DNA of 32,016 nt, taken from Verrucomicrobiaceae bacterium (lineage in GTDB: Bacteria; Verrucomicrobiota; Verrucomicrobiia; Verrucomicrobiales; V1-33). Shown here in pieces: positions 503 to 28,483 of this stretch. Every line of letters begins with the position of its first letter. Within the stretch, counting starts at the first letter, position 1. Location: contig JAIXPK010000162.1 in the NCBI GenBank assembly GCA_027486335.1, positions 1-32,016 on the forward strand. The letters run 5' to 3'. The translations under genes and the position numbers were made by a program. The notes under the pieces were generated by a model. It worked only from the letters and a program-made list of their open reading frames with translations. It did no database searches and was not told where the DNA came from.

Positions 503-2305
503 ATGTCACAGCCCGTCAAGGAATCGCCGCTCATGGAGAAGATCTCGAGCCTCTGCAAACGGCGTGGTTTTATTTTTCAGTCGTCTGAGATTTACGGTGG
601 GATTGCGGGGTTCTGGGATTACGGCCCGATGGGGGCGGAGTTGAAGCGGAATCTGCGGGATTTGTGGTGGCGAGCGATGACTCGGGAGCGGGAGGACGTG
701 CTGGGGCTGGATGCGACGATCATCATGCATCCGGCGATCTGGAAGGCGTCGGGGCACGTGGATACCTTCAGTGATCCGATGGCTGACTGCCTGCTGACGC
801 AGAAGCGGTTCCGGGCGGACCATGTGGATCTGCAGAGCGGGATGGTGTTTCGGTTTACAGGGGCGAGCGGTGATGAGGGGACGGCTAGTGTGGTGGCGTT
901 TGCGGTGCTGGTGCCGCCGGGCAAGCCGCGGGAGAGTGCGCTGAAGGTGGCGAAGCAGTTTTACGAGCAGCGCGGGGTGAAGAATGCGGTGGTGCTGGGA
1001 GGTGAGCAGGGGGAGAAGGTGGAGAACACGCGTGGATTCAATCCTGAGAACGGGGCGCAGCTGACGGAGCCGCGGCCATTCAATCTGATGTTCAAGACGT
1101 ATGTGGGGCCGGCGGCGACGGAGGCGGATGTGGCGTATCTGCGGCCGGAGACGGCGCAGGCGATTTTTGCGCAGTTCAAGAACGTGCTAGACACGTCGCG
1201 GCAGAAAGTGCCGTTCGGGATCTGTCAGATCGGGAAAGCGTTCCGGAATGAAGTGACGCCGAAGAACTACACGTTCCGGAGCCGGGAGTTCGAGCAGATG
1301 GAGCTGGAGTTCTTCATCAAGCCGGACGAGGCGGTGGCGGCGGTGTGCGGGAGTGTGGCGGAGTGGAGTGAGAGTGCGGATTTGTCAGTGCCTGCGGACA
1401 ACTGGGGATGGGAGATGTGGCACCGGTACTGGGTGGCGCAGCGGACGGCGTTCTATCAGAGCATCGGACTGGGAGCGGACGTGCTGGATTACTACTGGCA
1501 GACGGGGGATGACCTAGCGCATTATGCGAGGGCGTGTGTGGACATTCTGTTCAAGTTTCCGTTCGGGACGGAAGAGCTGGAGGGGATTGCGGCGCGTGGT
1601 GATTTTGATCTGACGCAGCATCAGACGCATTGCGGGAAGCCGCAGGAGTTCTTTGATGAGGAGCTGAAGGCGGCGGTGTCAGGGTGGGATGATGCGAAGC
1701 GGGCAGAATTTGTGGCGGTGAAGACGGCGGAGTTCCGGGCGAAGGCGGAAGCGGCGGCTGCGAAGGCGAAGCGTGCGGCGACGGCGGAGGAACTGGCGGC
1801 GGCGGTGGCCAGGGCGGAGCACTGGAGTGCGCGGTTCTTCACGGGGAACTATGTGCCGCATGTGATCGAGCCGTCGGCTGGGCTGGACCGGCTGGCGCTG
1901 GCGGTGCTGTGTGCGGCGTTCTGTGAGGAAGACAAGGCGGATGTGAACGGGAAGGTGGAACGGCGGACGGTACTGCGATTCCATCCGCGGGTGGCACCGG
2001 TGAAGGTGGGGGTGTTTCCGTTGTTGAAGAACCGGCCGGAACTGGTGGCGAAGGCTCGCGAGGTTTACGGGATGTTGAAGCCGCTGATGAATTGCTTCTA
2101 CGATGAGACGGCGGCGATCGGGCGGCGGTATGCACGTCAGGATGAAGCGGGCACTCCGTTCGGGGTGACAATTGATTTCGAGACGCTGGGCGAGAAGGGG
2201 CCGGAACTGGCGGACACGGTGACGGTGCGGGAGCGGGATAACGGGGCGCAGCACCGGGTGAAAATTGGGGAGCTGAAGGGCTGGCTGCTGGAGCGGCTGG
2301 CTTGA
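503..2305 (+). CDS. glyQS: Glycine--tRNA ligase, alpha2 (single-chain) type
   Basis: A class II aminoacyl-tRNA synthetase of 600 residues that charges tRNA-Gly with glycine. Near the N-terminus it has the family signature KRRGFIFQSSEIYGG, then GFWDYGPMGAELKRN. Motif 2 is FRNEVTPKNYTFRSREFEQM at about residue 247. Motif 3 is EPSAGLDRLAL at 456-466. The anticodon-binding domain fills the last 110 or so residues (PVKVGVFPLLKN onward). A charged Ala/Lys-rich helical insert sits at about 413-440 before motif 3. The start at 503 follows the natural family beginning; the frame stays open upstream to 74, but that extension is low-complexity spacer with no similarity to the family. An alternative start is Met at 533. 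There is no clear Shine-Dalgarno site. Codons end strongly in G. Confidence 0.95.
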   Translation: MSQPVKESPLMEKISSLCKRRGFIFQSSEIYGGIAGFWDYGPMGAELKRNLRDLWWRAMTREREDVLGLDATIIMHPAIWKASGHVDTFSDPMADCLLTQKRFRADHVDLQSGMVFRFTGASGDEGTASVVAFAVLVPPGKPRESALKVAKQFYEQRGVKNAVVLGGEQGEKVENTRGFNPENGAQLTEPRPFNLMFKTYVGPAATEADVAYLRPETAQAIFAQFKNVLDTSRQKVPFGICQIGKAFRNEVTPKNYTFRSREFEQMELEFFIKPDEAVAAVCGSVAEWSESADLSVPADNWGWEMWHRYWVAQRTAFYQSIGLGADVLDYYWQTGDDLAHYARACVDILFKFPFGTEELEGIAARGDFDLTQHQTHCGKPQEFFDEELKAAVSGWDDAKRAEFVAVKTAEFRAKAEAAAAKAKRAATAEELAAAVARAEHWSARFFTGNYVPHVIEPSAGLDRLALAVLCAAFCEEDKADVNGKVERRTVLRFHPRVAPVKVGVFPLLKNRPELVAKAREVYGMLKPLMNCFYDETAAIGRRYARQDEAGTPFGVTIDFETLGEKGPELADTVTVRERDNGAQHRVKIGELKGWLLERLA

Positions 2306-2614
2306 GGGCCTGACGGGTCATTCACGGGTTCTGGTGAGATGCCTGCGGCCGGAAGGCTGAAAGGTTTCGATGTGGTCCCGTGGGTGAACGGGGAGGGGTG
2401 TGGGCATCCGGGAGGGAGGAGTGAGACCTCGGCGTCACGGTCTGCTGGACAAAGGCCGGCGCAGCAGGCATGATCCTGACAGTCATGAACCAGCCAGATC
2501 CTGTTGTCGTTCGAGGTGCGTGTTGCTCTGAGAGGCCGGGAGCGAGTGATCTGCGTGGCGGGGGGCACGCCGGGAGAGGGGCGGTTTTAGCTGAGACGGC
2601 TCTGACGTGAAACC
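2306..2614. other. Gene-free spacer after glyQS
   Basis: About 309 bases without a supported gene. No terminator hairpin with a T-run, tRNA or clear repeat was found. The first half is still G-rich on the + strand, while the second half approaches the even G and C content of the following cassette, so the boundary of the possibly acquired segment lies in this spacer, roughly at 2430-2520. Reverse-strand frames here show no family resemblance. Confidence 0.4.
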
Positions 2615-3421
2615 ATGAGAAAGGGACGTCCAGTGAGTCGAACCGGATCAATGACAGTCCTGACGGCCACGGGACTGGTTGCTTCGTTGGTGGTATTCAA
2701 TGTGCTGGTGGCTTACCTCAGGGGGAACAACACGAATCACACTGGTTTTGGATTGTGGATTCTGGCTCTGGTGTTTCTTCCGACGCTGCTGCTCGGCGGG
2801 TGGACTGGTTTCAAAGGTAATCGCCGCTGGATTGGGTGGTTGGCGTGTCTCGCGGGTTGCGGAGGGATGGCCTTCCTGTGGTACATTGACTACGACAACA
2901 TCCTTCGTGAGTACGAGCGGTGGAGCAAAAGAGGTGAGAAGCCGGCACCCCTTGCGAGCTGGCCACCCCTTGCTGACGAGGAGCTTTATGAGTTCAAGCC
3001 GATCTCGGAAGGCGTCCGTCGCGCGAAATGGCTAACGCTCTTCGAGGGACTTCCGCATCCCACGTGGGAGACCGGTCAACTCGACGAAGAACTCGGATCT
3101 AAGGAGACGATCATCATTCATGATTTTCCTTTCTACGAGCGTCCGTTGTCGATTGCGGCGGATGATGTCGAGCCGTTGCGCAGTCTCTGTGCCGCGGCGG
3201 ACAGCTATGCTTCATACACGGGTGAGAAGCTTTGCGGAGGTTACCACCCCGACTACTGTCTCAGGTGGGAGGATGAGACGGACACTTACGACCTGATGAT
3301 TTGTTTCGGCTGTGGCGAGATGAAGCTCTACGGCCCTGAGAACTATTTGATAGTGGACCTCAATGCTGCGTTCAAGAGGCTGCTTGAGAAGTATCGGGAT
3401 CAACGTCCGGAGCGGAAATGA
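2615..3421 (+). CDS. Unknown membrane protein, first gene of a four-gene cassette
   Basis: A 268-residue protein I cannot assign. Three hydrophobic segments fall at about residues 13-35, 45-62 and 71-90. A hydrophilic cytoplasmic or external domain of about 175 residues follows. Its C-terminal part contains KLCGGYHPDYCLRW and DLMICFGCGEMKLYG, with several Cys, and ends YLIVDLNAAFKRLLEKYR. The last part resembles small domains often annotated only as hypothetical in Planctomycetes and Verrucomicrobia. The start at 2615 is the most upstream; Met at 2651 is an alternative that would shorten the N-terminus by 12 residues. Its stop overlaps the next start in an ATGA, so the two are likely translationally coupled. 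Codon use is much less G-biased than in flanking genes. Confidence 0.75.
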   Translation: MRKGRPVSRTGSMTVLTATGLVASLVVFNVLVAYLRGNNTNHTGFGLWILALVFLPTLLLGGWTGFKGNRRWIGWLACLAGCGGMAFLWYIDYDNILREYERWSKRGEKPAPLASWPPLADEELYEFKPISEGVRRAKWLTLFEGLPHPTWETGQLDEELGSKETIIIHDFPFYERPLSIAADDVEPLRSLCAAADSYASYTGEKLCGGYHPDYCLRWEDETDTYDLMICFGCGEMKLYGPENYLIVDLNAAFKRLLEKYRDQRPERK

Positions 3422-3630
3422 ACGCGATGATGGACGGAACTTACGGGTTCAGGTCTGGTTTGCCGGCGGAGGCGACTGAGTTTGACCAGTTTGGTGAGAT
3501 GATTTTGTCCGGAGCGTGGCAGATCCTTGAAGCGGATGGCAGCGTTTCTCTGATTGCCGATGCGCCAGGATTCGTTCAGGACGGGGTCTCGTGGCGGATG
3601 ATTCCGGCGGTGCTTGAGTCGTTCGCTTGA
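3418..3630 (+). CDS. Small unknown protein, coupled second gene of the cassette
   Basis: A 70-residue acidic protein beginning MNAMMDGTYGFRSGLPAEAT. It has no membrane segment, signal peptide or motif I recognise. Its ATG overlaps the stop of the preceding membrane protein (ATGA), and its own stop is six bases before the next start, so it reads as the middle gene of a tight operon. The length, tight packing and low GC skew are shared with its neighbours. A role as a small partner or immunity-like protein is only a guess from this arrangement. Confidence 0.6.
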   Translation: MNAMMDGTYGFRSGLPAEATEFDQFGEMILSGAWQILEADGSVSLIADAPGFVQDGVSWRMIPAVLESFA

Positions 3631-3636
3631 TAAGCC

Positions 3637-4116
3637 ATGCATTCAGCCGAGTTCATCTTCGACCATCCGAGTGGATTGCGAATCTCCCGCGATCTCCTTG
3701 AGGCGGAAGTTGCGTCGATAGCTGGTGTTGGCAGGCGCGATATGGGGACGGGGTGTGTCTGGTATTCGTTGCCGAAGCTAAGCTCTGGATGCTACCACAT
3801 TTCGATGAGCCTGTGCTTCCAGTCGGGCTCTCTTGACTCGATCTCGATCGCATTGGACGATCCGGATTCAGGAGGCGGTTGGAGCGACTGGTCGGAAGAG
3901 AAGGAGCGGACGCGAGTGGATCAAACGAAGGCCTTGCTTACGGCGCAAGCGTGTCCCCCTGGAACCTACCCGTGGGGTGAGGTTTGGGCGGCTTACGATT
4001 CCAAAGGCGGATTCGGTAGTGCGGGCGTCCGATACAACCGCCAACGTGACGACAGGGGAAACCCGACTGCTGGCCCCGAGTCGGATCTTTCTTGTGATAC
4101 CGACCATAAACCGTGA
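3637..4116 (+). CDS. Unknown soluble protein, third gene of the cassette
   Basis: A 159-residue soluble protein that I do not recognise by name. The middle (SGCYHISMSLCFQSGSLDSI) looks like beta strands. A conserved-looking segment, PWGEVWAAYDSKGGFGSAGV, lies at about residues 111-130 and resembles hypothetical proteins in which this WGEVWA..D.KGGF pattern precedes the C-terminus. The last 30 residues are low in predicted structure (RQRDDRGNPTAGPESDLSC) and may be a degenerate or frameshifted tail. It starts six bases after the preceding stop. GC skew is near zero, unlike surrounding core genes. Confidence 0.65.
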   Translation: MHSAEFIFDHPSGLRISRDLLEAEVASIAGVGRRDMGTGCVWYSLPKLSSGCYHISMSLCFQSGSLDSISIALDDPDSGGGWSDWSEEKERTRVDQTKALLTAQACPPGTYPWGEVWAAYDSKGGFGSAGVRYNRQRDDRGNPTAGPESDLSCDTDHKP

Positions 4117-4172
4117 TGAAGATTGGCGTTTTCGGTAGACGCTGGTGAAGCGCGGGGTAATCACCGGGATCA

Positions 4173-4538
4173 ATGGCCTACCTCGCAATGCTTTTGATGG
4201 TGCCGGTTGGCGATGTCGTGAAGTTTCACACGCGCGAGACGATCTCGGATGCCGGGGTGGCGTCATTTATGTGCTCGCATTTCATCGCAGCGCATCCCCG
4301 GATCAAAGCGATTCTCGATGAAGGTAGACCTCTGAGTACGGAGATGTGGCATCCGATTGTGAAACCGCATTATCACCTTCCAGCCGAGCTTCCGGCAGCG
4401 GTTGCGGTCCTTGAGGATGTGGAGGCGACCGAGCCGGACATTCAGAGGGATGAGTGGGTTCTTGCGGAGATACACAAGCTTCGTGATGCGTGCCGCTATG
4501 GGATAGCCCACGGGCTGGCTATGGTCGTCATCCTGTAA
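4173..4538 (+). CDS. Unknown small protein, last gene of the cassette
   Basis: A 121-residue protein with a hydrophobic beginning (MAYLAMLLMVPVGDVV), then a mixed alpha/beta-looking body and a helical C-terminus (EIHKLRDACRYGIAHGLAM). The beginning is too short and polar at its end to be a convincing signal peptide, and Met at 4188 or 4197 could be the true start. It lies 56 bases after the previous gene and just before the repeat cluster. No known motif was found. Confidence 0.55.
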   Translation: MAYLAMLLMVPVGDVVKFHTRETISDAGVASFMCSHFIAAHPRIKAILDEGRPLSTEMWHPIVKPHYHLPAELPAAVAVLEDVEATEPDIQRDEWVLAEIHKLRDACRYGIAHGLAMVVIL

Positions 4539-4680
4539 AACACCCGGTCCAGGGCGCCCTTGGTGAACGGGGGATAGCTGGTGGTTCGTGGCGACCGGCG
4601 GTAGCGTGCAGTGCCTGCGGTTGGCTTGGGGGGAGGGAGGGGGGCTGGGCTTGGGACGTTGCCGCTGGCGTTGGTAGGCC

Positions 4681-4770
4681 GCCCTTTCAGGGCTCCGGGT
4701 TGGGGGCGCGGTTTGACCCGGGGCGTTGCCCCGGTATACGTTAGGGCGCGCCGTTGGCGCTGGGGGAGGG
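4681..4770. repeat. Hairpin repeat unit, copy 1
   Basis: It begins with a small hairpin, GCCCT-TTC-AGGGC (4681-4693), and continues with CCGGGGC, loop GTT, GCCCCGG near 4718-4734, then GGGCGCGCCGTTGGCGC. The 56 bases from 4715 are repeated at 4891 with two differences. Similar compact GC-rich palindrome units are common in intergenic DNA of Verrucomicrobia and Planctomycetes genomes; whether this one is mobilised by a REP-type transposase is not shown here. Confidence 0.75.
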
Positions 4771-4800
4771 CGGGTTTGGAGAGTGTGTGAACGGAGGGCG

Positions 4801-4866
4801 GGTAGGCGTGCTCCGCACGCAGGGAGAGCTGTGATGCTCACAGCAGTCCAGAGCCTGCGGCGCGCT
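4801..4866 (+). repeat. Two-hairpin dispersed repeat, copy A
   Basis: The first stem is GCGTGC with loop TCC and GCACGC (4806-4820). After AGGGAGA comes a second stem, GCTGTGA with loop TGC and TCACAGC. The shared tail is AGTCCAGAGCCTGCGG. The second stem is a perfect seven-base-pair match here, while other copies carry different loops. The orientation given is that of the common tail. Confidence 0.75.
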
Positions 4867-4869
4867 GTG

Positions 4870-4885
4870 GGGATTTGAGATTTGA
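4870..4885. repeat. Short direct repeat GGGATTTGAGATTTGA, copy 1
   Basis: This AT-richer 16-base word stands out in G-rich spacer and occurs again, identical, at 22821-22836, also in a repeat-filled gap. It sits directly between a two-hairpin copy and a hairpin unit. Confidence 0.55.
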
Positions 4886-4890
4886 GGTTG

Positions 4891-4946
4891 GACCCGGGGC
4901 GTTGCCCCGGTCTGCGTTAGGGCGCGCCGTTGGCGCTGGGGGAGGG
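4891..4946. repeat. Hairpin repeat unit, copy 2
   Basis: A 56-base unit nearly identical to 4715-4770; the only differences are in TATACG versus TCTGCG. It contains the same CCGGGGC/GCCCCGG stem followed by GGGCGCGCCGTTGGCGC. The close match suggests a recent duplication within this gap. Confidence 0.8.
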
Positions 4947-4960
4947 GGGGTCCGTGAATG

Positions 4961-5032
4961 GAGGGCGGGCCGCGCGCACTTTGGGCGCAGAGTGTCTGTG
5001 GTTCTAACGGCAGACCAGAGCCTGCGGTTGGC
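4961..5032 (+). repeat. Two-hairpin dispersed repeat, copy B (degenerate)
   Basis: It aligns with copies A and C through GGGCGGGCCGCGCGCACTT, GCGCAGAG and the tail CAGAGCCTGCGG, but the second stem is decayed to CTG/CAG with loop changes. It lies directly after hairpin unit copy 2, in the same order as copy A after hairpin unit copy 1. Confidence 0.55.
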
Positions 5033-5047
5033 TTCGGGGGAGGGGGG

Positions 5048-5142
5048 CAACCCCGTACGGGGTTGGGGCGATTTTTGGTGGTAAACCCGGGGTATCGCTT
5101 CGCGCCACCCCGGGCTACTAACCGGTCGTCCCTACGGGACGG
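5048..5142. repeat. Triple-palindrome repeat block
   Basis: Three inverted repeats in a row: CAACCCCGTACGGGGTTG (5048-5065, perfect palindrome), CCCGGGGT with ACCCCGGG around a 13-base loop (about 5086-5114), and CGTCCC with loop TAC and GGGACG (5128-5142). No T-run follows, so they are poor intrinsic terminators. They resemble compound palindromic intergenic repeats more than regulatory RNA. Confidence 0.7.
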
Positions 5143-5227
5143 ATGCGTGGTGGGAGAGGGCTGGTTCGGAGAGGGGCTCGCGCGAAGGCGCGGAGGGTTG
5201 GCGGGGAGGGGGCTTGTTGGGAGGGGA

Positions 5228-5294
5228 CGGGTAGGCGCACTTCGTGCGCAGGGAGAGCTGTAATTCGGACAGCAGTCCAGAGCCTGCGGCTGCT
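5228..5294 (+). repeat. Two-hairpin dispersed repeat, copy C
   Basis: The first stem is GCGCAC with loop TTC and GTGCGC. After AGGGAGA the second stem is GCTGT with loop AATTCGG and ACAGC. The tail is AGTCCAGAGCCTGCGG. The two stems differ in sequence from copy A but keep pairing, which suggests compensatory change. Confidence 0.75.
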
Positions 5295-5442
5295 TAGTCG
5301 GAGAGGCTGGTTGGGAGAGGGGGCTTACGCGGAGGGGGGAAGGGGCGGGGGAGGGCGGGTGGGGAATTGGGGTGAAGGAGAAGGCTGGACTGGGGAGTTG
5401 GGGGAGGTATGGTGACGGAAAAATCATGAAAAGGAGACAGCC

Positions 5443-8400
5443 ATGCGAGTACTGATACTGGTTCTGATGATGCTGGGGTTGGTTGGGGAGGCTGTGGCGC
5501 AGGTGAATGCGGCGCAGGGGAAGCCGGTGACGGCGAGTGGGCCGTTGTGGTCGGGGTTTCCGGTGACGAATCTGACGGATGGGTTGGTGACGACGTTCAC
5601 GCATCCTTTGGCGTCGTCGGCGACGCTGGGTTTCCGGTATGAGGTGAACCTGCAGGCGAGTCGGAACATCAGTGCGATCCGGATTTACAATCGGGACAAC
5701 TGCTGTCCGGAGCGGCTGACGAATTACCGGGTGAGTGTGCATGCGGACAATGGGGCTGGAGCGGCGGGAGCGGCGGTGTGGAGTGCGGTGGTGCGTGGGA
5801 ACGGGACGAATTCGGGGATGGGTGGGATGGATGAGGTGCTGGCGTCGGCGCATCCTGCGGGGACGTTTACGGGGCAGTGGGTGCGATTGGAGAATCTGAG
5901 CAATGCGGCGTACAATCCGCAGCTGGCGGAGATTCAGGTGTGGACGGACGATATTGCGGTGCCGAATCTGGCGTTGAACAAGCCGGTGACGGCGAGTGGG
6001 GCGGTGAATGCGGGGATGACGGCGTCGAATCTGACGGATGGGAATCCGCTGACGGCGGCGCATCCTGCGAGCGGGGTGACGACGGGGTTTTTCTGGCAGG
6101 TTGATCTGCTGAAGGTGCAGGCGCTGGACCGGGTGGTGATTTATCAGCGGTCGGATTGCTGTCCGGAGAGGTTGAGGAATTACCGGGTGACGATTCATGG
6201 TGACAACGGCGGGGTGGCTGGGCCGGCGGTGTGGACTGGGGATGTGCGGACGGATCTAACGTTTGCGGAGCCGGGGTCGGCGGATACGGTGACGGCGGCG
6301 ATGGGGTCGGGGGTGTTCAGCGGGCGGTATGTGAGGATTGCGAATCTGGGTGGTGATGCGTTCAGTCCGCAGATTGCGGAGGTGGAGGTCTATCGGGCGC
6401 CGCCGCCGCGGGTGGGGTATTTTGCGCCGGACACGGGGAATATCACGGCGACGGGGAATCCGGCGATGAAGTCGGAGGCGGTGCTTTCGTGGCGGGTGGA
6501 GGGAGCGGACAGTGTGACGATTGACCGCGGGGTGGGGGTGGTGGCGGCGAGCGGGACGGTGACGGTGCGGCCGAGTGAGCGGACGGTTTATACGCTGACG
6601 GCGGCGAATGCGGTGGGGTCGGTGACAGCGGTGGTGACGGTGGCGGTGGATGCGGTGGAGCAGCCGGTGAGGATCAATGAATTTGTCGCGGACAATGGCG
6701 GGGCGGTGCGGGATGAGGATGGGGATGCGTCGGATTGGATAGAGTTATACAATCCGAATGATTTCACTGTGAATCTTGCGGGGATGGGGTTGTCGGACAA
6801 TCCGGAGGTGTTGCGGAAGTGGGTATTTCCGTCGGTGGCGGTGGGGCCGGGTGGTTATCTGGTGGTGTATGCGTCGGGGAAGAATCGGGCGGATGGGGCG
6901 GCGGTGCTGCACACGAATTTTCAGCTGAGTCGGGCCGGGGAGACCCTGACATTGAGCGGGGCGGATGGCGTGGTGGTGGATCGGGTGCCGGAGGGATGGC
7001 CGGTGGTGACCTTGTATCCTGAGCAGTCGCCGGACACGGGTTATGGGCGGAATGCGTCGGGGGCGTGGCGATATTTCCGGCCGGCGACGCCAGGGGCGGT
7101 GAATGTTGGTGAGGGTTTTGCGGGGGTGGTGGCGGACACGAAGTTTTTGCCGCGAAGGGGCGTGTTCAGCGGGCCGCAGATGGTGGCGATTTCGTGTGAG
7201 ACGCCGGGTGCGGTGATTCGTTATACGGTGAACGGTACGGTGCCGACGGCTACGACTGGGACGGTGTACAGCGGGCCGGTGGCGGTGAATGTGAGCACGG
7301 TGATTCGGGCGGCGGCGTTTGCGGTTGGGTTGGCACCGACGAATGTGGACACGCACAGTTATATTCTGCCTGAGACGGTGGCGTCGCAGCCGGGGATGGT
7401 GGCGGCGGTGACGGGGAATGCGGTGTGGGGGCCGCAGATCCCGGCGGCATTGCGGGATTTGCCGGTGGTGTCGGTGGCGACGCCGTCGACGGCGGCGATC
7501 AACGATAATGCGGAAGTGGCGGGGAACATTGAGTGGCTGGATCCTGCGAATGGTGGGAGTGCCAGTGCGGGCATGGGCCTGACCTATTTTGGCGGGGCGT
7601 TCACGAATTTTGCGAAGAAGAGTTTCCGGCTGTATTTCCGGGACAACTATGGGGCTCCGAGGTTCGAAGCGCCGTTGTTTACGGGGGCGGATCACGGGAC
7701 GGATGCGGTGACGTCATTTGACAGCATTGAGCTGCGGAGCGGGAGTCATGACATGGTGGATCGCGGGTTTTACATGAGCAATCTGTTCACGGACCAGGCG
7801 ATGATGGAGATGGGGCATGTGTCGCCGCACGGGCGGATGGTGCATTTGTTTCTGAATGGGACGTACTGGGGGATGTACCATCTGCGGGAGCGGTGGAATG
7901 CGGCGATGATGGCGGATTATCTGGGTGGGGCGAAGGAGGAGTACGAGGCGATCAACGGGAACTACAATGTGGGCGGCTGGCCGACGCCGGGGCAGGCGTA
8001 TGACGGGACGGGGGCGGGGTGGGAGCGTGCGAAGGGGCAGCGGACGAGTTATGCGGGGATCCGGCCGCTGGTGGATGTGACGAACTACATTGATTACATG
8101 ATCACATGGATGTTCGGGAATTCGGAGGATGAGTATCGGTGTGCGGGATTTCCGGGGCCGGGGAGCGGGTTGAAATTTCTGATGAATGACGCGGACGGGT
8201 GGCTGTCGGTGAACGGGTCGAATGGGATTGCGGCATGGGACGGGAGCGATAACAACACGGCGCGGGCGTCGACCCTGACAAATGGGGTGTTTACGGCGGG
8301 GCGGTCGCCGGGGGACGGGCCGGGGGCGATTTTTGCGGGATTGCTGCTGGCGGCGGATCCTGAGTATCGGATTCTGCTGGCGGATCGGATCAATCAGCAT

Positions 8401-16372: not shown

Positions 16373-17580
16373 GGGCTGGTGGGGTTGTTAGGCGGGACGA
16401 GCAGGGCGAGGATCTGGGCGAGGTGGGATTCGAGTGTGAATCCCTTGGTGAACCATGAGCGGAGTGAGAGGAAAGGATCGGCGACGAGGGCGTCGGCGGC
16501 GAGGGCGGGGAGTTGCGTGAGATTGTCAGGGTGGGCGAGCCACGGGTAATCGGGCGGGAGTGCTTCAGGGATGCCGCGCCAGCGGGTGGAGAGGACGGGG
16601 AGACCGAAGGCGAGGGCTTCGAGGATGGTGAGGGGGAGCCCTTCGTTTTCGTAGCGGGTGGGGAAGACGAAGAGATCGGCGGCGGCGAGGAGCGCTTTTT
16701 TTTCGTCGGGGCCGGTGAAGCCGGGGAGGTTGACGGAGAAGAGAGGCTGGAGGTGGGTGGGGAGGGATGCGCGGGCGGCGGCGACGGCGTTGTGGAATTC
16801 GGTGGCGTCGGCGTCCGAGCGGAAGGGCCCGGCGACGGTGAGGGTGACGGGGCAGGCCGGGTGGCGGGAATTGAGGTGGGCGGTGAGAGCGGCGGCGGTG
16901 TCGAGGGCGTCGAAGATGCCTTTGGAGCGGACGCAGAGCCCGAGGTAGAGGAGGTGGACTGGGGCGGGCGGGGCGTCGGGGTTGGCGAGGGCGGCCTTGC
17001 GGGCGGCGAGCCTTGATTGGCGCGCGGCGAGGATGGAGGGGAAGTCGGGGCAGGGATCGGGGATGCCGTTGGGGACGATGGCGATGCGGGCGGGTTTAAG
17101 GATGGCGACGTCGGCGGCGGAGCTATTGGAGAGACAGAGACTGAGCGAGTGGTTGAGGAGGAGCCGGTGGAGACGCCGGGCCCATGGGTCGTCGGGGTGA
17201 TCGGCGAGGTAAGCGCCGAGGCCGACCGAGTGCCAGTGGAGGATGAGTCGGGAGGTGAAGGGACGAAGGATGGAGAGGAGGAGGACGTCGCGGATGACGG
17301 GACCGCGTTTTCCGGGAGCGGGGACGTAGTAGATTTCGCGGGCGCCTTTGAAGAGACAGGCGGCGATGGCTTTGAGCGTGCAGGCGGCGAGGGCGAAGAG
17401 TTTGGCGGGCCGCATGGTGCCGACGTCCTGTTCGTCGCGGGAGAGGAGGAGATTGACGTGGACGACCTTGTCCGGGAAGCGGGAGGTGGCGGCGTTGACG
17501 AGGTGGCCGACCATGACGGACTGGCCGTGGGTGGGCGGAGGGGACTGGGCGAGGATCAGGAGGCGAGGGATCCGGGGCAT
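16369..17580 (-). CDS. Glycosyltransferase, GT4-like (GT-B fold)
   Basis: A 403-residue glycosyltransferase with no membrane anchor. The N-terminal half starts with RLLILAQSPPPTHGQSVM, the sugar-acceptor side. The C-terminal half has VHLLYLGLCVRSKGIFD, then LFVFPTRYENEGLPLTILEA, which carries the E-x7-E motif (Glu313 and Glu321) that binds the nucleotide sugar in this family, then GLPVLSTRWRGIPE. It is the first gene of a two-gene operon with the acyltransferase. It probably adds a sugar to a cell surface polysaccharide; donor and acceptor are unknown. Confidence 0.9.
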   Translation of the reverse strand: MPRIPRLLILAQSPPPTHGQSVMVGHLVNAATSRFPDKVVHVNLLLSRDEQDVGTMRPAKLFALAACTLKAIAACLFKGAREIYYVPAPGKRGPVIRDVLLLSILRPFTSRLILHWHSVGLGAYLADHPDDPWARRLHRLLLNHSLSLCLSNSSAADVAILKPARIAIVPNGIPDPCPDFPSILAARQSRLAARKAALANPDAPPAPVHLLYLGLCVRSKGIFDALDTAAALTAHLNSRHPACPVTLTVAGPFRSDADATEFHNAVAAARASLPTHLQPLFSVNLPGFTGPDEKKALLAAADLFVFPTRYENEGLPLTILEALAFGLPVLSTRWRGIPEALPPDYPWLAHPDNLTQLPALAADALVADPFLSLRSWFTKGFTLESHLAQILALLVPPNNPTSP

Positions 17581-27259: not shown

Positions 27260-28406
27260 TTAGACCTCGTCGTCGCTATCGCCGTCGGCGGTCTGGCCGC
27301 GGAGTTTGGATTCGATGAAGACGTCGATATCGCCGTCCATGACGGAGGAGATGTTACCGGTTTTGCAGCCGGTGCGATGGTCCTTGACGAGTTGATAGGG
27401 TTGGAAGACGTAGGAGCGGATCTGGCTGCCCCATGCGATTTCGCCCTTCTGGTCGTAGCTGCGCTCGACTTCGGCCTTCTTTTTGTCTTCCTCGATCTGA
27501 TAGAGTTTGGCTTTGAGCATGCCCATGGCGAGGTCCTTGTTTTTGCCCTGGGAACGTTCGTTCTGGCAGGCGACGACGACGCCGGAAGGTTTGTGGGTGA
27601 TGCGGACGGCGGTTTCGACTTTATTGACGTTCTGGCCGCCTTTCCCGCCGGCGCGGTAGGTATCGACCTGGAGGTCGACGTCGCGGATTTCGATATTGAT
27701 AGTGTCGTCGATTTCTGGGACGACGTCGATGCTGCAGAACGACGTGTGGCGACGACTCTGGGAGTCGAAGGGGGAGATCCGGACGAGGCGGTGGACCCCG
27801 CGTTCGTTCTGGAGGTAGCCGTAGGCGTAGGGTCCGGAGACCTTCATGGTGACCGAGCGGAAGCCTGCGCCTTCACCTTCTGTGAAGTCGATCATTTCAG
27901 CGGAGAGCCCGTGACGGTCGGCCCAGCGAGCGAACATGCGGTAGAGCATTTCGGCCCAGTCGCAGGCCTCGGTGCCACCTGCGCCGGCGTGGACGGTGAG
28001 GAAGGCGTTGGAGTTGTCGAGACCTCCGCTCATGAGCGTGAGGATTTCGAAGTCTGCGATGGCGCGGGTGAGTTTGGGGAATTCGTCGCGGGCTTCGACG
28101 CGCATGGAGGGGTCGGAGTCTTCTGCGGCGAATTCGAGGAGGACGTCGAAGTCGTTGAGGCGAGCTTCGAGTTTGCGGAAGGTTTCGATTTTCTGGCCGA
28201 CGACGGCGCGATCGGAGCTGACGGCTCTGGCTAGGGAGGCGCGGTCCCAGAAGTCCGGGGCGGACATTTTCTGCTCGAGTTCCGCGAAGCGGGTTTCAAG
28301 GGCAGGCAAGTCAAAGATACCTCCGGAGTTCGCCCAGGCGCGCATGGAGCGCGGTGGTGTCGAACGCCTGGAGGTCGATGGTCAGAGCGTTGGTATTAGG
28401 TTCCAT
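27260..28406 (-). CDS. prfB: Peptide chain release factor 2, with programmed +1 frameshift
   Basis: Release factor 2 ends translation at UGA and UAA. The first 31 codons (28406 to 28314, [11 protein letters not shown] onward) end at an in-frame TGA (28313-28311). The ribosome must shift +1 at CTT TGA C to read on as [10 protein letters not shown]; total length is then 381 residues. After the shift the domains are normal: the stop-codon recognition tripeptide SPF (about 211-213) and the GGQ motif in [12 protein letters not shown] (about 256-258), plus [17 protein letters not shown]. An ATG at 28345 in the second frame gives an ORF without the recoding site and is not the true start. It is in the group with the sulfatase-like and mini-prepilin genes. 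Confidence 0.95.
28310..28325 (-). promoter_or_regulatory. prfB +1 frameshift recoding site
   Basis: On the - strand this reads CGGAGGTATCTTTGAC. It has the internal Shine-Dalgarno-like CGGAGG just before TAT, the CTT slippery codon and the TGA stop followed by C, the same arrangement as in E. coli prfB (AGGGGGTATCTTTGAC). Low RF2 favours frameshifting and so RF2 makes its own level: this is known for the family. A normal gene caller splits or trims the gene here. Confidence 0.95.
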
Positions 28407-28483
28407 GGAGAGAAGAGCGGGCACAGAGGAGCCGGAGAGGTGGACTGCAAGTGGGGAGTTGGGAATTCAGGGGACGTTGCAGG

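What the first reader, a model, noticed from the sequence alone, without database searches (positions are those of the whole stretch)
2430..4540. Skew-free four-gene cassette, likely acquired
Bases 3001-3060 have 18 G and 19 C, whereas 1741-1800 (+ gene) have 31 G and 14 C, and 17041-17100 (- gene) have 31 G and 9 C. The four genes at 2615-4538 are packed (ATGA overlap, 6-base gap, 56-base gap), unrecognised and bordered by repeats. One is a membrane protein with a Cys-rich domain, one is a 70-residue protein. The arrangement would suit an accessory system such as toxin-immunity, but no function is shown.
Basis: partly seen in the sequence, partly recalled or inferred. Interest (0 to 1): 0.6.

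Follow-up and report, generated by a model that had tools for sequence, protein, structure and literature searches.

The report
Foreign gene block at variable site
A 2.1-kb block of small unknown genes in a strongly strand-skewed Verrucomicrobia genome is foreign DNA: a sister species carries the same block at another locus and holds unrelated foreign DNA, an integron-type gene array, at this one, so these look like ordinary swap sites for accessory genes.

Summary
2397-4540 is the least skewed, lower-GC stretch of the window (1.9-kb G-C skew 0.156; window mean 0.38). Third-codon skew is 0.10-0.40, against 0.51-0.81 in 14 core genes; integron cassettes of the same genus have at most 0.25 in size.

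Acquisition is supported by synteny. In congener G001, similarity to the glyS flank (95%) ends at window 2398, where similarity to the cassette begins, and the cassette lies on a different contig. Downstream of G001's glyS is a different low-skew segment, an attI-like leader plus cassettes with an attC site. G000's version of G001's cassette locus also carries a different low-skew, attI-led segment. The two loci therefore hold swapped, unrelated contents.

The block itself has no attC or attI, so it is not shown to be an integron cassette. Its left edge is a promoter-like leader repeated at about ten places. The g3 family occurs in two integron-type arrays and beside barstar/SUKH-type genes on a plasmid. 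The g1 domain is an undescribed membrane-anchored Cys/His family. g2 looks degenerate and g4 is an orphan. A toxin-immunity pair is not supported. This is a new member of a known kind, an accessory gene block at a variable site.

The parts
2397..2614 (+). Left edge and leader: dispersed promoter-like repeat (invariant TGCTSGACA ... CATGAT-like, about 17 nt apart); only 72-75% identical to the leader of the congener copy
   Evidence: Similarity to G001 glyS flank ends at 2398, to the G001 cassette begins at 2397; about ten copies in G000/G001/G003 by nhmmer
2615..3421 (+). g1: 268 aa, three predicted N-terminal membrane helices plus a C-terminal domain (about residues 130-262) with C-x-GFH-x-D and C-x-G-C-x-E motifs
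   Evidence: AlphaFold2 model helices 10-37, 43-63, 70-105, domain pLDDT 55-91; 91% aa identical copy in G001; dN/dS about 0.2-0.3
3418..3630 (+). g2: 70 aa; matches only the C-terminal half of a 112-aa homolog in another G001 island; probably a shortened remnant
   Evidence: dN 0.077, dS 0.044 against the G001 copy
3637..4116 (+). g3: 159 aa; family of small soluble proteins (W-x-x-[WF]-[ST]-E-x-x-E motif); residues 135-159 lie beyond the end of most homologs
   Evidence: homologs in two integron-type arrays and on Hymenobacter plasmids
4173..4538 (+). g4: 121 aa orphan; linkage to g1-g3 not shown outside this genome
   Evidence: No match in 289 phylum genomes other than its own, nor in plasmids
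4600..5430 (.). Right border: array of GC-rich hairpin repeats found at many places in the genomes of the order

Best explanation
The stretch 2397 to about 4540 is a horizontally acquired block of accessory genes in a variable interval between glyS and a CotH-type gene. Shown: it has foreign composition; its left junction is within a base or two of 2397; it sits at another locus in a congener; and both loci carry unrelated low-skew inserts in the two species. Inferred: it was acquired before the two species split (most of the core is 90-98% identical, like glyS at 95%), moved afterwards, and recombined at its 5' end (leader and first 30 codons of g1 are only 72-79% identical). Inferred: it is expressed from its own promoter-bearing leader, which is a repeat shared by other low-skew genes, and it moved by recombination between dispersed repeats at its borders rather than by a site-specific recombinase. 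Proposed function, weakly supported: g1 anchors a metal- or disulfide-stabilised Cys/His domain on the outer face of the inner membrane, and g3 is a small binding protein of the immunity-like sort that travels in integron arrays and plasmid islands.
For: Composition. Junction and relocation: glyS flank 95% to window 2398, cassette match from 2397 on G001 C327. C327 belongs to the genus: 5.4 kb matches G000 C421 at 95%, and after the end of that match G000 carries other genes with third-position skew -0.14 to 0.16 behind an attI-like leader at C421:2404-2334. G001's glyS-side insert has an attI-like segment and an attC site. The G001 CotH ortholog starts a contig and its glyS faces a contig end, which fits one shared interval. 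The leader is repeated at about ten places, and genes after three other copies have third-position skew of only 0.27-0.43 in size. g1 is under purifying selection. The g3 family sits in the G312 integron and a G098 integron-like array, and near barstar, SMI1/KNR4 and DUF5063 genes on a Hymenobacter plasmid.
Against: Both genomes are fragmented metagenome bins. The congener contig ends inside g3, so the right end and g4 are unproven, and glyS-CotH adjacency in G001 is not shown. No recombinase, target-site duplication or empty site was found for this block. Skew is intermediate (0.15), so an old native region that escaped strand bias is not strictly excluded. No function is demonstrated for any gene; the g3 model was useless (pLDDT 34) and the g1 domain's best PDB match is marginal (4r7r, E 0.025).
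Confidence: 0.72

Rival explanations
1. The block is an integron gene-cassette segment whose attC sites have decayed: the genus's own integron captured the genes and scattered them.
For: G000, G001 and G003 have integron integrases over the NCBIfam cut-off and attC arrays. G001's own glyS-side insert is such an array. g3 relatives are cassette genes in G312 and probably G098. Scattered low-skew arrays with attC exist in all three genomes.
Against: No attC or attI in the block by sequence search, by an R/L-box scanner that recovers most known sites in the positive-control arrays, or by folding: real attC z -3.6 to -3.9, block segments z -0.7 to +1.6. g1 and g2 overlap and g2-g3 are 6 bases apart, unlike one-gene cassettes. 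The leader is a different repeat.
Confidence: 0.2
2. A toxin-immunity or defence module: g1 or g4 a toxin or effector, g3 its immunity protein.
For: Small packed genes; g3 relatives lie among barstar and SMI1/KNR4 genes on a Hymenobacter plasmid; the G001 copy lies beside an AAA_21/AAA_15 ATPase gene of low skew.
Against: No credible hit in PADLOC, Pfam, NCBIfam or PHROGs for any of the four. The g1 domain family is mostly a lone lipoprotein or membrane protein in ordinary loci. g2 shows no purifying selection. The ATPase gene is absent from the window.
Confidence: 0.1
3. A native region that keeps low skew because of its protein composition or local mutation, not because it was acquired.
For: prfB, a core gene, has total skew 0.18; identity of the cassette core to the congener is like that of core genes.
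Against: Third-position skew of prfB is 0.64, of the cassette genes 0.10-0.40. The block lies at different loci in the two species, and its genes are patchy in the phylum.
Confidence: 0.05

Closest known systems
Integron gene cassettes and attC clusters without integrase (CALIN)
   Same: Small orphan genes of foreign composition, one orientation, at variable sites; the g3 family itself occurs in integron-type arrays; the same site in the congener holds such an array
   Different: No attC, no attI, overlapping genes, a different repeated leader
Chromosomal integration hotspots with swapped accessory islands
   Same: Conserved flanks, non-homologous contents in sister species, at two loci reciprocally
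   Different: Very short (about 2 kb), no integrase, tRNA or transposase seen at the site
Poly-immunity islands of polymorphic-toxin systems (from general knowledge)
   Same: Runs of small single-domain proteins; g3 relatives beside barstar and SUKH-type genes on a Hymenobacter plasmid
   Different: No toxin, no recognised immunity family here

Membership tests
Integron gene cassette | attC recombination site downstream of the gene | tested here: not met
   none, while the positive-control arrays are largely recovered
Integron gene cassette | Lies in an array at attI next to intI, or in an attC cluster | tested here: not met
   No attI-like match in the window by blastn or nhmmer; intI is on another contig
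Integron gene cassette | Cargo genes known from other cassette arrays | tested here: met
   g3 homolog in the G312 array and an integron-like G098 array
Horizontally acquired accessory island | Composition differs from host | tested here: met
Horizontally acquired accessory island | Conserved flanks with different or no insert in close relatives | tested here: met
   Left flank at glyS and reciprocal locus C421/C327; right flank inconclusive because G001 contigs break
Transposon or integrase-borne island | Recombinase gene, terminal inverted repeats or target duplications | tested here: not met
   No such gene recognised among g1-g4 and no inverted repeats in 2200-5600
Toxin-immunity pair | Recognisable toxin or immunity domain | tested here: not met
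Toxin-immunity pair | Toxicity of one gene neutralised by its neighbour | not testable with these tools
   Needs expression in a laboratory strain

The most novel reading that the evidence does not exclude
A family of short promoter-bearing leader repeats marks the left edge of separately acquired genes across this genus, and acts, alone or with an unknown recombinase, as the landing or moving signal of leader-tagged gene blocks, parallel to but distinct from the genus's integron.
Probability: 0.1. Interest if true: 0.65.

Novelty: new member of a known kind. Interest (0 to 1): 0.4.

Why it matters
In these strongly skewed genomes, third-codon skew flags imported genes directly: the integron cassette genes checked here have a third-codon skew of 0.25 or less in size, while the core genes checked exceed 0.5. 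That gives a simple ruler for finding accessory genes without databases, and it exposes two loci whose cargo differs reciprocally between sister species. The g1 Cys/His domain and the g3 family are undescribed protein families that could be defined from these alignments.

Tried and rejected
attC/attI in the block: rejected by four methods. g1 as MerC or DUF4131: E 0.04 and 0.01, below cut-off, in its membrane segment only. PDB sequence relatives of g1 and g3: none credible. Viral relatives of g1 and g3: none. Structure of g3 from a single sequence: unusable. Acido-Lenti-1 RNA in the right-hand repeats: 24 bits against a gathering score of 37, not accepted. A conserved short ORF (MKQPDPVVVR...) in the leader repeat: codon-position differences 121/192/205 give only a weak coding signal, not claimed. 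Contig-end overlap to join G001 C251 and C112: none found. Literature on integrons in this group: nothing specific found. Single-60-mer counts were rejected as the test because they are too noisy.

Full report
What is there. Four ORFs lie at 2615-3421, 3418-3630, 3637-4116 and 4173-4538 on the plus strand, with an ATGA overlap, a 6-base gap and a 56-base gap. The 1.9-kb window with the lowest G-C skew starts at 2601 (0.156 against a mean of 0.382, sd 0.077), and GC drops to about 0.57. Total skew can mislead: prfB at 27260-28345 has total skew 0.18 but third-position skew 0.64. Third-position skew is the sounder measure. It is 0.51-0.81 in 14 core genes of the window (glyS 0.60 in its correct frame), -0.72 and -0.76 in two core genes of the opposite replichore, within |0.01-0.25| in 17 integron cassette genes of the genus, and 0.16/0.40/0.10/0.29 in g1-g4. 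The block therefore lies between fresh cassettes and native genes.

Where it is in relatives. The only other close copy of the block found in 57 relatives is in congener G001, the MAG D1_MAG_00053 of a pond Verrucomicrobiaceae. The match begins at window 2397 and runs to 3745, where the G001 contig ends. G001's glyS region matches the window at 95% up to window 2398 and then continues into other DNA on another contig. Thus the same base or two is the end of one homology and the start of the other. In G001 the DNA beyond glyS is low-skew and contains an attI-like segment, two small genes and an attC site. G001's CotH ortholog (95%) starts a contig, which fits a shared glyS-insert-CotH interval, but adjacency is not shown and no contig-end overlap was found.

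The reverse test. The G001 contig bearing the cassette matches G000 contig C421 at 95% over 5.4 kb, so it is a genuine contig of this genus. The match stops at C421:2404. From there G000 carries different genes of third-position skew -0.03, -0.14 and 0.16, starting with an attI-like leader at C421:2404-2334. So at two loci the sister species hold different low-skew inserts, and the window's block is at one locus in one species and at the other in the second.

Age and 5' mosaic. From 2697 to 3745 blocks are 90-98% identical between the copies, similar to glyS (95%); the leader and the first 30 codons of g1 are only 72-79% identical. The likeliest reading is acquisition before the split, later relocation, and exchange of the 5' end; this is inference. 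g1 is under purifying selection (codons 31-268: dN 0.033, dS 0.16), whereas g2 is not (dN 0.077, dS 0.044).

The leader. The segment 2397-2614 belongs to a dispersed repeat with about ten copies in G000, G001 and G003, with a conserved TGCTSGACA and a CATGAT-like hexamer about 17 bases apart, resembling a promoter. Genes after three of the other copies have third-position skew of 0.27, 0.43 and -0.30 (the last on the other replichore), lower in size than core genes.

Is it an integron cassette? The genus has integrons: integrases over the cut-off in G000, G001 and G003, and 94-base attC sites. The block has neither attC nor attI by sequence, by an R/L-box scan that recovers most positive-control sites, or by folding (real attC z -3.6 to -3.9; block segments z -0.7 to +1.6), nor does it match the attI profile. 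It fails the membership test. The kinship of its cargo is nevertheless suggestive: a g3 homolog is a cassette in the integron of G312, and another lies in a G098 contig of small genes with repeated attC-like gaps and a group II intron reverse transcriptase, in a genome with four integron integrases.

The proteins. g1 has three predicted membrane helices and a C-terminal domain found in about 10 of 289 phylum genomes, one Planctomycetes and one Rubritalea MAG. Eleven columns are invariant in 13 members, including C, H and D of C-x-GFH-x-D and C, C and E of C-x-G-C-x-E. Most relatives have an N-terminal lipoprotein-like or membrane segment and lie in ordinary contexts. The fold model of the domain is fair (pLDDT 55-91); the best PDB match is a Clostridium lipoprotein, 4r7r, E 0.025, TM 0.53 by target. 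A metal or disulfide role for the Cys/His residues is inference. g3 relatives share a W/E-rich motif; in the window the gene runs about 25 codons past the end of most relatives. On Hymenobacter plasmids they lie among orphan genes, in one case with barstar, SMI1/KNR4 and DUF5063. g4 has no relatives in the sets searched.

Verdict. The acquired status is well supported, the toxin-immunity idea is not, and the mechanism of movement is unresolved between repeat-mediated recombination and decayed integron cargo. The block is a new member of a known kind.

Noticed in passing
L094, L096, L098, L026, L024, L135, L058 (G000, G001, G003): attI/Pc-like leader segments (profile E 1e-31 to 1e-8) precede small-gene islands, mostly of low skew, at seven or more places without a nearby integrase seen; only two copies sit beside intI (L087, L088). 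Dispersed attI-led arrays of this sort may be unusual.
   Followed up: partly
L087:228-1625, L105:1-3070, L099:926-2124, L098:492-2268, L094:906-2744: Integron cassettes in a genome with skew of about 0.4 have total skew near zero, which makes skew a clean marker of imported genes.
   Followed up: yes
window 1-32016; compare L027, L028, L029: Extreme G-C skew (third position 0.5-0.8, both gene strands) in G000, with similarly strong total skew in G001 and G003, but near zero in the stretches read from congener G002 and other genera of the family: strand asymmetry seems to have changed sharply within one genus.
   Followed up: partly
L025:6027-7829 (minus): Low-skew AAA_21/AAA_15 ATPase gene with a TOPRIM-like EGSTDVD stretch (OLD-like) directly beside the cassette in G001; possible defence gene.
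   Followed up: partly
window 27260-28420 (minus): prfB with the usual in-frame CTT-TGA-C programmed frameshift site.
   Followed up: partly
window 4600-5430: GC-rich hairpin repeats dispersed in the order; two copies give sub-threshold matches to Acido-Lenti-1 RNA (24 and 18 bits, gathering 37).
   Followed up: partly
L119:2960-4318: Group II intron-type reverse transcriptase, apparently split into two frames, inside an integron-like array of G098.
   Followed up: no
L065:5290-7311 (minus): A 673-aa protein with three tandem copies of the g1 Cys/His domain; the third copy has lost the cysteines.
   Followed up: no
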